Source: Nanobdellati archaeon (GTDB lineage Archaea > B1Sed10-29 > JAGVWA01). From it: a stretch of 5,752 nucleotides of DNA. Each line of letters begins with the position of its first letter. Positions within the stretch are counted from its first letter, which is position 1. Position numbers and translations under genes: made by a program. The DNA lies in NCBI GenBank assembly GCA_018304505.1, contig JAGVWA010000002.1, positions 83,350 to 89,101 of the forward strand, read 5' to 3'. Of this stretch, positions 205 to 5,572 are shown piece by piece. The notes beneath the pieces were generated by a model that was not told where the DNA came from, did not search any database, and worked only from the letters and a program-made list of their open reading frames with translations.

Positions 205-720
205 ATGAGTAGACGAAGCAGAAAAATCACAATGCGCAGAAGCGATTTGGGCAGAAACCGAAGCAAGGGCCTAATAAGCCTCGACGCGATGATCGCAATC
301 ACCACCCTCCTGTTTTTGGTGCTGTGGTTCCAGTCTTTCGGGGTATCAATGCTCGAAAACTCAAGCATTGTCGGGACAAAGATGCAGTCAAAGACCTTGT
401 CACTGACCATAGGCAGCCAGCTCAACGCGTTCATGGCCATAAAACCCCAAAGCGGGGACTATGCCTGCGTCACAAAACCAGCATTAAAGGTTTTCCCTGA
501 CAAGGACGTCACGAATTACGCAGTGGCGAAAACAGGTGCAAAGATCGCAGTGGGTTTCCCCCAGGGCACGTTTCCCGAAAACCTAAAGGCCGACGTGTTA
601 AACATACTCTACAACATGCAGCAGAGCTATCCTGTAATCGGGAACGTGATTTACTTCAACGGCGCAGCGGCATTAGAGCAATTAGTGATAGCGCCATGCA
701 GTATAGGTGAGGCAAGATGA
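205..720 (+). CDS. Pilin-like membrane-anchored surface protein (class III signal)
   Basis: This 171-residue protein has a basic N-terminus of about 21 residues, then SKG|LISLDAMIAITTLLFL, a close variant of the archaeal class III prepilin motif K-G-Q-I-S-L-E. A PibD/FlaK-type peptidase would cut after Gly22, leaving an acidic Asp at +5 and a hydrophobic helix at about residues 28-47. The rest (50-171) is predicted to be extracellular, with two cysteines (C88, C165) and one N-glycosylation sequon (N52-S-S). The ATG is supported by GGGGAG at 196-201, and the long basic leader contains no better start. The TGA overlaps the next ATG (ATGA), so the two are probably translationally coupled. The domain after the helix is not recognised. 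Role as a minor pilin or pilus-like surface subunit is inferred from the N-terminus and neighbours. Confidence 0.75.
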   Translation: MSRRSRKITMRRSDLGRNRSKGLISLDAMIAITTLLFLVLWFQSFGVSMLENSSIVGTKMQSKTLSLTIGSQLNAFMAIKPQSGDYACVTKPALKVFPDKDVTNYAVAKTGAKIAVGFPQGTFPENLKADVLNILYNMQQSYPVIGNVIYFNGAAALEQLVIAPCSIGEAR

Positions 721-1157
721 GACGGGGAATTATCTTCACAATGGATCTGATGCTGGCAGTTACGGTAGTGGCAGCCATAGTCGGTTTCGCCATATGGGAA
801 CTTGAGGAAGTCAATAGCAGGGCGAATGAGCTGGAGTTCAGGAAAATGGACAGGATCGCTAGCGATCTGGCGCATTACTCCGTAAAGGTAATATTTACTG
901 AACAGGTTGGCGACATAACTATGCCAAACGCAATCAATTCACAGTCACAGGACTTTTCCGGCAAGCTAGGCCAGTTCTACACCAATGTATTCGCAATGCT
1001 GGCAGACACTAGATACTCGGCACAATTATCGCTAGCAGGCCAGGCAGTAAATGAACTGAACTGCGAAGAGGCCAATAACATCGTCGTCGCGAAACGGCTC
1101 GTTGTTGACTTAGCTGACAATGTTACAAAGTGGCTTGAGGTAAAGATATGCGATTAG
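717..1157 (+). CDS. Small pilin-like membrane-anchored protein
   Basis: This 146-residue protein begins MRRGIIFTMDLMLAVTVVAA. A very short basic leader ends in Gly4, followed by a hydrophobic segment at about residues 5-27 interrupted only by Asp10. This G-hydrophobic-F-T-x-D pattern is common in archaeal (especially DPANN) small surface proteins and resembles a prepilin signal with the acid one residue later (+6 if cut after Gly4). Residues 28-60 look like an amphipathic helix continuing from the anchor, as in pilins. There are two cysteines, C116 and C145, the latter next to the C-terminus. The start overlaps the previous stop (ATGA), and AGGTGA at 705-710 lies 6 bp upstream. The product probably sits in the membrane with its C-terminal domain outside. 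Whether the leader is cleaved cannot be told from the sequence. Confidence 0.72.
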   Translation: MRRGIIFTMDLMLAVTVVAAIVGFAIWELEEVNSRANELEFRKMDRIASDLAHYSVKVIFTEQVGDITMPNAINSQSQDFSGKLGQFYTNVFAMLADTRYSAQLSLAGQAVNELNCEEANNIVVAKRLVVDLADNVTKWLEVKICD

Positions 1158-1183
1158 CCGTCAAAAACTGGAATATTCAAAAT

Positions 1184-1191
1184 GGGGATGA
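1184..1191 (+). promoter_or_regulatory. Ribosome binding site for the 1199 gene
   Basis: GGGGATGA resembles the archaeal anti-16S complement GGAGGTGA and lies 7 bp before ATG 1199. It matters because ATG triplets also occur at 1182, 1188 and 1192. The first two share a frame that closes at TGA 1197-1199, and the third lies in another frame. Only 1199 opens the frame with the membrane-signal motif. Confidence 0.5.
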
Positions 1192-1198
1192 ATGAAAA

Positions 1199-1579
1199 AT
1201 GAGAAACGGAGTCGTGTTCACACTCGACGCGATCCTCGCCCTGGGGATCCTACTAATGACGATAGGCATAGTCATATCCTTTGTTTCAATACAGACGCAG
1301 CAGAACGACAACACGATAAAGCTGTCGCGGCTCGCCAGGGATATTTATGAAATCGACTACTATTTCACCTCGGGCTTGATTGCGGCTAACGCGCCAGGGG
1401 ATGTTGTGCAGTTGTGCAATGACGACTACCAGGAAATCGCAGTCATGCAAGAGGTATTCAGGTATAACGACGTAACATCATCAGGGCATGATGAATCAGG
1501 GGTTTTCAACAAATGGCATTACGCAGGCATCAGCCCAGTAGGCGTTACAAAAAAAGCGTGTTTACGGGGGGTAAAATGA
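1199..1579 (+). CDS. Small pilin-like membrane-anchored protein, paralog-like N-terminus
   Basis: This 126-residue protein starts MRNGVVFTLDAILALGILLM, nearly the same N-terminal pattern as the product of 717-1157: short leader, Gly4, F-T-L-D, then a hydrophobic helix to about residue 30. The remaining part shows no clear similarity, so the two share an export and assembly signal rather than a close duplication. Two cysteines (C73, C121) lie in the predicted extracellular part, the second five residues from the end. The ATG at 1199 is preceded by GGGGATGA at 1184-1191, 7 bp away. The 41-bp gap before it is the largest in the operon. The stop TGA overlaps the next gene's ATG. Role inferred as a minor pilin-like subunit; no family domain is recognised. 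Confidence 0.7.
   Translation: MRNGVVFTLDAILALGILLMTIGIVISFVSIQTQQNDNTIKLSRLARDIYEIDYYFTSGLIAANAPGDVVQLCNDDYQEIAVMQEVFRYNDVTSSGHDESGVFNKWHYAGISPVGVTKKACLRGVK
1566..1572 (+). promoter_or_regulatory. Ribosome binding site that fixes the start at 1576
   Basis: A GGGGGGT run lies 3 bp before ATG 1576, inside the end of the preceding gene. It supports 1576 over the upstream in-frame ATG at 1513, which has no such site and would add 21 basic, non-signal-like residues encoded wholly within the preceding gene. Confidence 0.5.
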
Positions 1580-2556
1580 GTTTAGCAGATTCAACATGCG
1601 GAAGGGGCTTTATTTTCAGCGGCGCCACGTTTCTGTTAGCGACAACAATTCTGATCAGCTACGGCTATCTCATCTGGGCCAGCAACACCATGGATGAGTC
1701 CATTCCAAGGATAATGGAATTCGACAGCATTGACAACTTTGCCCAAGACGCACTGCGGATCATGTTGATTTCAGGCAACAGCGCATTCACCGATTCGTTG
1801 CAAGACGCGGCTGCCGCGTCACTGTCTGCTGGAAACGAGCCGTTGTGTAGGCAGGGCCAGGTTTCAAGCGACGGCGTGCCAGAAGGGTGCTGCATGTATA
1901 CATACCAAGCCTCAGTAGGTCAGGCGTGCAACGCAGAATCAGTAAAGGTTACAGAAAACGCAGACCTGCTCTCGGTTTCAGTACTAAATAGGGCATGCGA
2001 CACCCTACGTGATTCACCACAGTTCATAGAAACCACGGTGTCAAACTACATAACGCGAGCTGCCCGGGAAGCGGCGCTGCTCTCAAACTACAAAATACAG
2101 GACTTAAAACTAACAGCCGATGTCACAGATACCTTGGCAGTGTCTGGCTCTTGCGGCTTACAAGTAAGGGTTAATGGGAGCTTTGTCGTCACAGACAGTG
2201 CACTGAGCGTTCGCAAGACCCAGAGCTTCAATTTAACGAAAGTATTGCAGATCCAAAGATCAAGGCAAGCAGGGCAAGTCTTGATGCAAGAAATACGCGC
2301 AACAGGCCCGGGATGCACAGCCCAGGAATCGCTGCAAGTCAACTACACCGAAGTGCGCGACTTTGCCAACATTCAGGTTAGGAACCAGCAAGGCCAACTA
2401 GAATATGGAAACCGCCAAGACGGCTTGTTCCACATTTCAACATTCGTTATACAGGAGCAGGGCTGTGTTGAAAAACAACAGGCGCAGCAGCCAGGAGTTA
2501 CATGCAATCAGGTAAGGCCGTTTTGCAACAGCATCGCTCTTACTGAGGTGACGTAA
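1576..2556 (+). CDS. Cysteine-rich extracellular protein with N-terminal membrane anchor
   Basis: This 326-residue protein begins with a short polar leader, then GRGFIFSGATFLLATTILIS, a hydrophobic anchor at about residues 11-36. The signal resembles those of its three upstream neighbours (Gly then F-I-F-S) but lacks the acidic residue after the glycine, so normal prepilin processing or assembly is doubtful. Residues 37-326 should be outside. They hold ten cysteines (91, 105, 106, 118, 141, 193, 247, 297, 310, 317), an even number that allows five disulfides, and three sequons (N200-G-S, N219-L-T, N256-Y-T). The C-terminal half alternates beta-like strands and is rich in Gln. ATG 1576 overlaps the previous stop and has a strong GGGGGGT upstream. 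It could be the tip or adhesive subunit of the structure formed by the smaller proteins; this is inference, and no family domain is recognised. Confidence 0.7.
   Translation: MSLADSTCGRGFIFSGATFLLATTILISYGYLIWASNTMDESIPRIMEFDSIDNFAQDALRIMLISGNSAFTDSLQDAAAASLSAGNEPLCRQGQVSSDGVPEGCCMYTYQASVGQACNAESVKVTENADLLSVSVLNRACDTLRDSPQFIETTVSNYITRAAREAALLSNYKIQDLKLTADVTDTLAVSGSCGLQVRVNGSFVVTDSALSVRKTQSFNLTKVLQIQRSRQAGQVLMQEIRATGPGCTAQESLQVNYTEVRDFANIQVRNQQGQLEYGNRQDGLFHISTFVIQEQGCVEKQQAQQPGVTCNQVRPFCNSIALTEVT
2545..2551 (+). promoter_or_regulatory. Strong ribosome binding site for a GTG start
   Basis: GAGGTGA is a near-perfect archaeal Shine-Dalgarno sequence, 6 bp before the GTG at 2558 and inside the end of the preceding gene. 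It decides in favour of the non-ATG start, since the frame from GTG 2558 opens directly with a complete signal peptide. Confidence 0.65.
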
Positions 2557-3471: not shown

Positions 3472-3494
3472 GACATGCAACCGACACTATGGCT

Positions 3495-3554
3495 ACGTTT
3501 GTTGCCATGCGGCAACAAAAATGGCATAAGTTTGTTGCCTATGGGTCACAAACG
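3495..3554. repeat. 60-bp hairpin repeat, copy 1
   Basis: This 60-bp sequence is identical to 4791-4850 and in the same orientation. It folds end to end as an imperfect hairpin. The outer arms are ACGTTTGT (3495-3502) and ACAAACGT (3548-3555, using one flanking base). Next come CCAT (3505-3508) with ATGG (3541-3544), and an inner 9-bp stem GGCAACAAA (3511-3519) with TTTGTTGCC (3531-3539) around an 11-base loop. A competing local hairpin pairs TTTGTTGCC (3498-3506) with the same GGCAACAAA around a 4-base loop. It lies between two converging genes, 49 bp after one stop and 2 bp from the stop of the ATPase gene. It lacks the T-run of an intrinsic terminator in either direction. Confidence 0.95.
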
Positions 3555-3556
3555 TA

Positions 3557-4756
3557 TCAATAAAGCAGGCCAAGCAGGTAAATAGGAATTTCATCCTTGC
3601 TTGGCACTATGGATTCTGTGACAAGGTAGGCGTTTTTCAGTTTATTTATCTGCGTCTTCTTTTTTGATGGCCCCCCCACTTCAAATATCCTGTTTCCGCA
3701 CTTAAAATCAGGGGTCTTCCTGGCCTTTCGTGACCGCAGGTATGTGCAGTTTCCAATGTGCTGTGCGAAGAAGTCTTCCCTCATGCCTCCAATGCTAGGT
3801 TTTGTGCCATAGTCACCAGCCAACGCTGCCCGAAAAGATAGGGGCAGGAGGAGCTTGTCCTCAGCCCTAATTGCCTTATGCCCTTGGCCTTGTGGTGGTA
3901 TTTGCATGACAATACCTGACAGATTTAATAGCCGTGCGAGCTCTATTACGAATTTTGTGCTCCTCCCAAGGCTCGTGGCGAGCTTCGAGTAGCTAACCTC
4001 AGCTGGTTCTGCTGTTGCTATGAATTTCATTATCTTGAATGCAGATTCAACGTAGTGCACGTCGATTTCCCGCAATGCCAGTAAGTCGTAGTGGATTGTT
4101 CTTGAAAGCACACCGAGGTATGTGTCTTTCTTGTTTTCGAAAAACGCTGCTGGCAAAGCATCATTCGAGAGGTACGGTTCAAAGAGGCTTATGTGGGGCG
4201 CCACTTTTTTTACTAACTCAGTTTTGTTGGTAAGGATGTCATCTATTGTCACTTTCGGTAGCAACTGGCCTGTTCTGAAGTACAAGTATTCCCTGAAAGA
4301 CAGTGGCTTTAGTATGTAAATCGATGCGCGTCTTGACAACTCAGAGGCCCTTGTAGTGATTGCCAGTGCTGAAGAGCCAGAGGCAACGATCTTTGCTTTG
4401 GTTGTGTCATAAAATATTTTTATGTCCTTTTCCCAGTCCGGGATGGCATGTATCTCATCCAGCAAGAACATCGACAGGCCCTTTGAGTAAGCATGCTGCA
4501 GGAAATCGAGTAGGTCAATGTCATACTTTACCAGCAGTTCGGCGTTTATGTAGAGTGAATTTTGGTTTTTAACTGAAAGTTCTATCAGGAGGGTTGTCTT
4601 CCCAGTGCCACGAAGCCCCGCTATCACTGACAAGCCCCGCGATTTTGAAATTGCATCTATGATGTCCCGTGACGCAGGCCTAAGTTTTTCGGTCGTATGC
4701 TCTTCAATCATCTGCGCTGAGTTTGACAATACTCTTGTGAATAATTCTTCGTCCAT
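3557..4756 (-). CDS. AAA+ ATPase with C-terminal DUF4143-like domain (COG1373 type)
   Basis: Counting from ATG 4756 (399 residues), the protein shows Walker A GLRGTGKTT (about 47-55), Walker B MFLLDEIH followed by PDWEKDIKIFYD (about 96-117), and a sensor-like KIVASGSSAL (122-131). It then has the LKPLSFREYLYFR segment (149-161) typical of this archaeal/bacterial ATPase family. A winged-helix-like stretch follows (about 254-286: SYSKLATSLGRSTKFVIELA, then NLSGIV). The C-terminus carries a PD-(D/E)XK-like pattern, TPDF (348-351) then IFEVGG (357-362) and a Lys-rich stretch. Such proteins bind and probably hydrolyse ATP; their cellular role is poorly known and no substrate is evident. An in-frame GTG at 4771 would give 404 residues, but the TATA box position favours the ATG as a leaderless start. 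The gene opposes both neighbours and is framed by identical hairpin repeats. Confidence 0.85.
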   Translation of the reverse strand: MDEELFTRVLSNSAQMIEEHTTEKLRPASRDIIDAISKSRGLSVIAGLRGTGKTTLLIELSVKNQNSLYINAELLVKYDIDLLDFLQHAYSKGLSMFLLDEIHAIPDWEKDIKIFYDTTKAKIVASGSSALAITTRASELSRRASIYILKPLSFREYLYFRTGQLLPKVTIDDILTNKTELVKKVAPHISLFEPYLSNDALPAAFFENKKDTYLGVLSRTIHYDLLALREIDVHYVESAFKIMKFIATAEPAEVSYSKLATSLGRSTKFVIELARLLNLSGIVMQIPPQGQGHKAIRAEDKLLLPLSFRAALAGDYGTKPSIGGMREDFFAQHIGNCTYLRSRKARKTPDFKCGNRIFEVGGPSKKKTQINKLKNAYLVTESIVPSKDEIPIYLLGLLY

Positions 4757-4778
4757 GTACTGATTATGCACATCAACC

Positions 4779-4786
4779 TATAAAAA
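4779..4786 (-). promoter_or_regulatory. TATA box for a leaderless ATPase transcript
   Basis: The minus strand reads TTTTTATA here. Its centre is about 26 bases before ATG 4756, the usual archaeal TATA-to-start distance, so the transcript should begin at or one base before that ATG and carry no leader. The hairpin repeat begins 4 bp upstream of the box, so a protein bound to the repeat could affect transcription. Confidence 0.6.
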
Positions 4787-4790
4787 CCTT

Positions 4791-4850
4791 ACGTTTGTTG
4801 CCATGCGGCAACAAAAATGGCATAAGTTTGTTGCCTATGGGTCACAAACG
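4791..4850. repeat. 60-bp hairpin repeat, copy 2
   Basis: This copy is identical over all 60 bp to 3495-3554 and lies in the same orientation. The outer pairing is 7 bp here (CGTTTGT with ACAAACG) because the next base is G rather than T. It lies directly upstream of the ATPase promoter and is followed by GGCT. Perfect identity of two copies of non-coding sequence 1.3 kb apart implies a recent origin, gene conversion, or strong selection. Confidence 0.95.
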
Positions 4851-4859
4851 GGCTATTTT

Positions 4860-4911
4860 GTAGTGTAAGACGTGCGCGGCGTAGTGTAAGACCGCAGGGG
4901 GTAGTGTAAGA
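4860..4911. repeat. Three iteron-like copies of GTAGTGTAAGA
   Basis: GTAGTGTAAGA occurs exactly at 4860-4870, 4881-4891 and 4901-4911, with start-to-start spacing of 21 and 20 bp. The spacers (10 and 9 bp, GC-rich) differ in sequence. Spacing near two helical turns puts all copies on one face of the DNA, as in operators or replication iterons. The array lies between the right hairpin repeat and the PIN gene, ending 76 bp before its ATG, so it may be an operator for that gene. The ligand is unknown. Confidence 0.7.
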
Positions 4912-4987: not shown

Positions 4988-5572
4988 ATGGAATCAAAAA
5001 AAGTATCTGCGCTCGACAGGCCGGTGATTGTTTCCAATACGTCGCCATTGATCTGCCTGGCCAACATGGATTCCTTGGATTTGATAAGCAGATATAAAGA
5101 TGCGACTAAGTATGGTGGGGAGTTTAGATTTCTAATTCCGCAAGAAGTTCTTGATGAAGTAAAAAGCCAGAGGGGCAGGGTTAATGAATTCATAAGGAAA
5201 AATGATTTTGTTGAAGTGTTGCCGAAATTGATTGAGATTCCGGAAGCGGTAAGGGGGTATGCGAACATTATGGTTTATGAATACTTCACTCAGTATGCGC
5301 AACGGAAACCAGAGCATCATTACCCTGAATGCATTGTTATTTACCATGCGAAAAAATCAGATGCCTTAATTCTAATAGATGAAAGCGCTGCTAAAGCAAT
5401 TGCCAAAAATAATGGGGTTATTTACATTGATCATGTAAGCATCTTAGTAAAAGCTGCCCTGCTTGGATTAATCAGCAAAGAAGAAGCATTAAGGCGATTT
5501 AGACTAGGAATAAAAAAAGGCAATAGATATAAAAACTTGAATAAGATAATTAAATCATTAGAGGATATTTGA
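4988..5572 (+). CDS. PIN-domain protein, DUF3368-like (putative toxin nuclease)
   Basis: This 194-residue protein opens with a PIN-type first strand, PVIVSNTSPLICLANMDSLDLI (residues 12-33), closely matching the V-(D/N)-x-SPLI-LA-LdLL pattern of DUF3368 proteins. Then come FLIPQEVLDEV (48-58), an acidic residue in YPECIVIYHAK (E114), ALILIDESAAK (D131), and the typical end IDHVSILVKAALLGLISKEEALRRF. PIN proteins are metal-dependent RNases; many archaeal ones are toxins of toxin-antitoxin pairs. The first metal-binding Asp is Asn17 here, seen in some DUF3368 members, so activity is uncertain. It is somewhat longer than the usual 150-160 residues. No clear ribosome site precedes the ATG. At about 39% GC it differs from the roughly 50% GC surface operon, suggesting separate acquisition. 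The next gene begins 15 bp downstream and may be its partner. Confidence 0.78.
   Translation: MESKKVSALDRPVIVSNTSPLICLANMDSLDLISRYKDATKYGGEFRFLIPQEVLDEVKSQRGRVNEFIRKNDFVEVLPKLIEIPEAVRGYANIMVYEYFTQYAQRKPEHHYPECIVIYHAKKSDALILIDESAAKAIAKNNGVIYIDHVSILVKAALLGLISKEEALRRFRLGIKKGNRYKNLNKIIKSLEDI

What the first reader, a model, noticed from the sequence alone, without database searches (positions are those of the whole stretch)
3495..4850. ATPase gene precisely bracketed by two identical 60-bp hairpin repeats in direct orientation
Exact 60-bp identity of two non-coding sequences with nothing between them except one promoter and one gene is the layout of an excisable cassette. The gene's stop is 2 bp from one copy. 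COG1373-type ATPases are numerous in archaeal genomes with no settled function, so a repeat-bounded unit could show how they spread. No mobility enzyme is seen, so the mechanism would be new or act in trans.
Basis: partly seen in the sequence, partly recalled or inferred. Interest (0 to 1): 0.75.

Follow-up and report, generated by a model that had tools for sequence, protein, structure and literature searches.

The report
Single-gene ATPase cassette between operator repeats
In a tiny archaeon, one ATPase gene of a candidate antiviral-defence family sits between two identical copies of its own probable control element, and many relatives show the same layout with different repeat sequences, which suggests that such single-gene units can move between genomes without carrying a recognisable mobility enzyme.

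Summary
In detail: an exact 61-bp direct repeat (R; 3494-3554, 4790-4850) brackets one promoter and one gene and occurs nowhere else in the genome. R is two tandem ~22-bp palindromes 33 bp apart, ending just before the gene's TATA box, so the upstream copy is probably the gene's operator. The gene is an AAA+ ATPase with a winged helix and a PD-(D/E)XK-like domain (PADLOC candidate PDC-S01). The layout recurs: in the same DPANN phylum 17 of 49 such ATPases are bracketed by direct repeats, against 5 of 405 other genes (p about 4e-14). Repeat sequences differ from gene to gene; upstream regions track ATPase similarity (Mantel p 2e-4). Some relatives are instead bracketed by a duplicated host-gene 3' end, and two such sites lack the ATPase in a same-genus genome, which fits insertion of a one-gene unit. 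I favour a minimal integrating cassette whose ends are its own operator, moved by its own protein or in trans. Excision, circles and an empty site for the window's own element are not shown, and no other copy of R exists. The main rival is a paired regulatory site kept identical by duplication or gene conversion.

The parts
4790..4850 (.). R, promoter-side copy: two tandem palindromes directly upstream of the ATPase TATA box; probable operator and one end of the unit
3494..3554 (.). R, stop-side copy, 2 bp after the ATPase stop codon; identical to the other copy; other end of the unit
4794..4815 (.). palindrome TTTGTTGCC-ATGC-GGCAACAAA (perfect 9-bp arms) in the promoter-side copy
4827..4848 (.). 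palindrome TTTGTTGCC-TATG-GGTCACAAA (imperfect) in the promoter-side copy, centre 33 bp from the first
3498..3519 (.). same perfect palindrome in the stop-side copy
3531..3552 (.). same imperfect palindrome in the stop-side copy
4778..4787 (-). TATA-like box (TTTTTATAGG on the minus strand) about 22 bp upstream of the ATG; the identity of the two R copies ends just before it
   Evidence: read from the sequence; not tested
3557..4756 (-). ATPase, 399 aa from ATG 4756 (405 codons with the upstream GTG): AAA_14, winged-helix region, PD-(D/E)XK-like C-terminal domain; PADLOC PDC-S01
3491..3495 (+). GGCTA directly outside the 59-bp core of R (3496-3554); possible 5-bp target duplication, weak
4851..4855 (+). 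GGCTA directly outside the other end (core 4792-4850); possible partner of 3491-3495, weak

Best explanation
The 1.3-kb unit R-promoter-ATPase-R is a minimal integrating cassette of a candidate defence ATPase. The ATPase probably binds the paired palindromes in R, so R serves as operator (copy before the TATA box) and as unit end (both copies). Shown: the exact repeats, the recurring layout with gene-specific repeats, co-variation of the upstream region with the ATPase, and target-like duplications with ATPase-free sister sites for two relatives. Inferred: that the window's own unit arrived by insertion. One simple route is a circle or tandem unit with a single R that is opened by staggered cuts at the two outer edges of R and filled in, which leaves R at both ends. 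The cutting enzyme is not identified: it may be the ATPase's own PD-(D/E)XK-like domain or an enzyme acting in trans, as Xer recombinases do for pdif modules.
For: Exact 61-bp repeats including the linker. 17 of 49 ATPases against 5 of 405 other genes bracketed, Fisher p 3.9e-14; 15 of 49 against 1 of 405 at the stricter cut. Same positions in relatives with unrelated sequences: about -80 from the start and 2-6 bp after the stop. Upstream-region similarity follows ATPase identity, Mantel r 0.49, p 2e-4. L069: the 79-bp repeat holds the last 35 bp of the ATPase gene plus R, 3 bp after the carB stop, as expected of a circle or tandem unit with the gene tail joined to its own operator. L019 and L046 have R-like inner repeats and further outer duplications of 19 and 61 bp. 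L167, L168, L169 and L073 duplicate the 3' end of a neighbouring gene. Genome G012 lacks the ATPase at the orthologous uppS site and at the L169 site. C-terminal domain keeps RE..D..ExGG..K and structural matches are PD-(D/E)XK nucleases.
Against: R has no solo or extra copy in the genome or relatives, and another unit's R (L019) is also limited to its own two copies. No general target duplication outside R. About two thirds of these ATPases are not bracketed, including close relatives L020, L047 and L048. No recombinase in the window. The cleanest insertion evidence comes from the host-3'-end kind, not from the operator kind seen in the window. Structural matches of the C-terminal domain are weak (best Z 6.1).
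Confidence: 0.47

Rival explanations
1. Paired regulatory site, not a mobile end. The ATPase (or another regulator) binds R before its promoter and an identical R after its stop codon, to loop the gene for tight repression or to block transcription entering from the convergent neighbour. The copies stay alike through duplication or gene conversion and selection on the palindromes.
For: Upstream paired palindromes occur before the TATA box even where no downstream copy exists (L020, L031, L038), so R's basic role looks regulatory. In diverged pairs (L050, L051, L052) the palindrome arms look better kept than loops and linkers, so the downstream copy appears to be under selection (by eye). A Fic-type gene in G012 has matching half-sites on both sides with unlike 16-bp middles.
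Against: Selection on a binding site does not explain exact identity of linkers over 48-79 bp in several unrelated units. It does not explain the ATPase gene tail in the upstream copy of L069, nor the duplicated host-gene ends in relatives.
Confidence: 0.3
2. Tandem duplication debris. The unit once stood as R-ATPase-R-ATPase-R; loss of one gene copy by recombination left a single ATPase between two R copies. No mobility is involved.
For: L069's upstream copy contains an ATPase gene tail, as a collapsed array would leave. Arrays of several neighbouring ATPases exist in other archaea (G030, G051).
Against: In many units the left boundary falls within a few bp after a stop codon and the right one just before the TATA box, which repeated random deletions would not give. 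No remnant of a second ATPase was detected by tblastn beside the window unit or most others. Arrays outside the phylum share gene tails, not palindromic R.
Confidence: 0.15
3. R is an ordinary terminator or repeat element that happens to flank the gene, or an assembly artefact.
For: R can fold as hairpins on either strand (inverted repeats).
Against: Only two copies in the genome, strong specificity for one gene family, and independent genomes show the same layout with other sequences. The promoter-side copy lies upstream of the TATA box and so is probably not in the transcript.
Confidence: 0.04

Closest known systems
PDC-S01 candidate defence ATPases (PADLOC), AAA+ ATPase fused to HTH and RecB-like nuclease (arCOG type listed in PMC4158269)
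   Same: Same protein family by profile and the same domain order; single-gene, very common in archaea, enriched with many cross-domain transfers (PMC12988326)
   Different: I found no description of repeat bracketing in the papers searched; the window's subgroup has an ExGG..K form of the nuclease motif
pdif (XerC/XerD) modules of Acinetobacter plasmids
   Same: Small gene modules bounded by dyad recombination sites and moved in trans; an Acinetobacter plasmid carries a homologous ATPase in such a module, with a pdif site 12 bp after its stop codon
   Different: pdif sites are shared by all modules and stand in inverse orientation; R is specific to one gene, 61 bp with two palindromes, in direct orientation, and does not resemble the dif sequence tried
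Integrative elements at gene 3' ends (tRNA- or protein-gene attachment sites)
   Same: Relatives L167, L168, L169 and L073 are bracketed by a duplicated 3' end of a neighbouring gene
   Different: The unit is one gene with no integrase; the window's unit shows no such duplication
SoFic (solitary Fic) genes
   Same: A Fic gene at the G012 uppS locus has repeat half-sites on both sides, the first starting at its stop codon; SoFic is also enriched in DPANN (PMC12988326)
   Different: Different protein; the middle of the two copies differs

Membership tests
PDC-S01 / COG1373-type AAA_14 ATPases | AAA_14 P-loop domain with Walker motifs | tested here: met
   PF13173 E 1.2e-23; GLRGTGKTT and LLDE present
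PDC-S01 / COG1373-type AAA_14 ATPases | match to PADLOC PDC-S01 profiles | tested here: met
   E 7.4e-22, residues 26-301
PDC-S01 / COG1373-type AAA_14 ATPases | DUF4143 / PD-(D/E)XK C-terminal region | tested here: inconclusive
   No DUF4143 match for the window protein; D and E invariant and ExGG..K nearly so; matches of the domain model are nuclease folds but weak, best VRR_NUC Z 6.1, 73 residues, 3.3 A
PDC-S01 / COG1373-type AAA_14 ATPases | protects against viruses | not testable with these tools
   experiment needed; candidate status only
pdif (Xer) modules | 28-bp 11-6-11 Xer sites in inverse orientation at both ends | tested here: not met
   R is in direct orientation with 9-4-9 palindromes; no similarity to the dif sequence tried (score 8-10)
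pdif (Xer) modules | mobility enzyme acts in trans | not testable with these tools
   no recombinase in the window; enzyme unknown
insertion sequence / DNA transposon | own transposase | tested here: inconclusive
   no transposase in the window; the ATPase has a nuclease-like domain of unknown activity
insertion sequence / DNA transposon | target duplication outside the ends | tested here: inconclusive
   only GGCTA, 5 bp, next to the R core; no significant outer repeat; 19 bp in relative L019
insertion sequence / DNA transposon | more than one copy or empty site | tested here: not met
   single copy, no solo R in the genome held; no close relative held for an empty site
integron gene cassette | attC site and integron integrase | not tested
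   attC model not run; no integrase seen in the window

The most novel reading that the evidence does not exclude
A new kind of minimal mobile element: its only protein is an AAA+ ATPase with a winged helix and a PD-(D/E)XK-like domain that recognises its own operator as the element end, opens a circular form by long staggered cuts around R and so regenerates R on both sides at each insertion. Each lineage evolves a private R, which explains why no two units share it.
Probability: 0.22. Interest if true: 0.88.

Novelty: new variant of a known kind. Interest (0 to 1): 0.62.

Why it matters
ATPases of this family are among the commonest candidate defence genes in archaea (9,986 archaeal cases in PMC12988326) and their function and mode of spread are open. 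A repeat-bracketed one-gene unit gives a concrete way for them to spread in genomes too small for larger islands, marks the DNA site that the protein probably binds, and makes both function and mobility directly testable.

Tried and rejected
Window protein and the palindrome in viral contigs: nothing; the alignment A2 could not be used there. Solo or extra copies of R in the own genome, in 60 relatives, and of the L019 R in the phylum: none. General target duplications outside R: only L019 significant. Same layout in Thermococcus-sized and other archaeal genomes (G023, G045, G054, G059): not found; repeats in array G030 reflect shared gene tails. Aliarcobacter plasmid ATPases: no R-type bracket, although the ATPase of A. 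vitoriensis (L073) is bracketed by a duplicated P-type ATPase gene end. A control-gene hit in L161 (397 aa) is bracketed far from its ends and was not followed. Papers on repeat bracketing of these ATPases: none found.

Full report
Observation. The window lies at the end of contig C9 (83350-89101 of 89101) of a 917-kb archaeal genome, 92.8% complete. Relatives in the same phylum include records titled Diapherotrites (L054 and L084 match loci of G008), so it is a DPANN archaeon. The direct repeat is 61 bp, exact, at 3494-3554 and 4790-4850. The longest repeat in 20 shuffled windows is 14 bp. The copies enclose one ORF on the minus strand and a TATA-like box. The genome has no third copy, also not of one palindrome with up to three mismatches apart from two unlikely partial matches, and 60 relatives have none.

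Anatomy. R consists of two palindromes of about 22 bp, 33 bp centre to centre, with inverted outer ends (CGTTTGT...ACAAACG). The promoter-side copy ends a few bp before the TATA box. Homologues have comparable paired palindromes in the same place even where no downstream copy exists (L020, L031, L038). Similarity of the 120-bp upstream regions rises with ATPase identity (24 genes, Mantel r 0.49, p 2e-4). This suggests that the gene product reads this site; it is an inference, since binding was not tested and shared promoter sequence may add to the signal.

Protein. The product carries AAA_14 and matches PADLOC PDC-S01. An AlphaFold2 model (mean pLDDT 90.9) matches archaeal ATPases 2qen (Z 16.2, 258 residues, 4.5 A) and 2fna (Z 15.8) and apoptosis/NLR-type ATPases. 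The last 105 residues, modelled alone (pLDDT 81.7), match only weakly, but the rows are mainly PD-(D/E)XK nucleases: VRR_NUC Z 6.1, then Card1, McrC, Hjc. The motif R-E...D...ExGG..K is invariant or nearly so in 33 sequences. A nuclease is therefore likely but not shown.

Recurrence. I compared 250 bp upstream with 250 bp downstream of each gene. In the phylum, 17 of 49 ATPases reach the cut-off against 5 of 405 other ORFs (Fisher p 3.9e-14), or 15 of 49 against 1 of 405 at the stricter cut. The sample is of regions fetched for their ATPases, so the controls are neighbours in the same genomes. Repeats of 42-79 bp with 90-100% identity occur in L019, L021, L032, L056, L069 and a third ATPase in L161, with unrelated sequences. 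Genomes of other archaeal groups did not show it.

Two kinds of bracket. Kind A, as in the window, is the operator itself. Kind B is the 3' end of a neighbouring gene: uppS in L168, the end of an MscS-like channel in L167, the last 29 bp of a surface-protein gene in L169, and the end of a P-type ATPase gene in the bacterium Aliarcobacter vitoriensis, L073 (gene names MscS and P-type ATPase are my reading of the translated ends, not a database test). L046 and L019 combine an inner repeat with an outer one of 61 and 19 bp. Kind B looks like insertion with duplication of target sequence.

ATPase-free sites. G012 and G013 belong to one genus. G012 has uppS (74% identical protein) with a single copy of its 3' end and no ATPase. 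At the L169 site G012 has the related surface gene and no ATPase on that contig. At the uppS site G012 carries instead a Fic gene with repeat half-sites on both sides. These are gains or losses at the same spots; the direction is not proven.

A telling case. In L069 the upstream repeat begins with the last 35 bp of the ATPase gene (LPLVAFGFLY-stop) followed by R, 3 bp after the stop of carB, and the same 79 bp close the unit. A linear unit drawn from a circle or tandem array in which the gene tail runs into its own operator would look like this.

Mechanism. Best supported: a one-gene integrating unit whose ends are its operator. Possible chemistry: the ATPase bound to the two palindromes cuts opposite strands at the outer edges of R in a circular form, and repair fills in R on both sides. 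This step is inference. A trans-acting enzyme is also possible: a homologous ATPase sits in a pdif module of an Acinetobacter plasmid, with a Xer site 12 bp after its stop codon, and pdif modules are moved by host XerC/XerD (PMC12907356). R is not a Xer site by its anatomy, and each unit has a private R, which argues against one shared host recombinase.

Main doubt. Nothing shows movement of the window's unit itself. R is unique, there is no close relative to supply an empty site, and the GGCTA pair outside R (3491-3495, 4851-4855) is only 5 bp. In diverged pairs the palindromes look better kept than the linkers (by eye, not tested statistically), so the downstream copy has a role of its own, which a regulatory reading can also explain. 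I therefore put about 0.47 on the mobile reading and 0.30 on the regulatory one.

Known and new. The protein family is known as a candidate defence ATPase, enriched in archaea, with many transfers between domains (PMC12988326; also listed as AAA+ ATPase fused to HTH and RecB nuclease in PMC4158269). The repeat-bracketed form was not found in the papers searched.

Noticed in passing
window 4860-4870, 4881-4891, 4901-4911 (+); L012 1382-1392, 1404-1414: GTAGTGTAAGA three times, periods 21 and 20 bp, just right of the unit; the only other array in the genome (two copies) lies directly upstream of an Orc1/Cdc6-type gene on contig C14. It resembles origin recognition boxes, so the window may hold a replication origin.
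   Followed up: partly
window 4988-5572 (+): PIN-like gene matching PADLOC candidate PDC-S70, next to the ATPase unit
   Followed up: partly
window 205-2556 (+): Run of short proteins with a conserved N-terminal GxxFTLD-hydrophobic segment, like type IV pilin-like proteins; no Pfam match for those tested
   Followed up: no
L205 325-371 and 1281-1327: Fic gene between GTAGTGCCTACTGGAAACAG-N16-GTAGGCACTAC copies, the second starting at its stop codon
   Followed up: partly
L266 1876-1903 and 4440-4467: Acinetobacter plasmid: homologous ATPase and two small genes between inversely oriented pdif sites
   Followed up: partly
L161 3811-7714 and L170 4029-11814: Clusters of three ATPases in a few kb; two of the three in L161 and all three in L170 bracketed by their own different repeats
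   Followed up: partly
L221 2194-3336, L222 2018-3160, L223 2072-3214: On three Aliarcobacter plasmids a DUF4172 (Fic-type) gene lies directly upstream of the related ATPase
   Followed up: no
L073 around 3720-3790 and 5118-5190: Aliarcobacter vitoriensis: ATPase inserted at the 3' end of what reads as a P-type metal ATPase gene, with a 72-bp duplication at 66 of 72
   Followed up: partly
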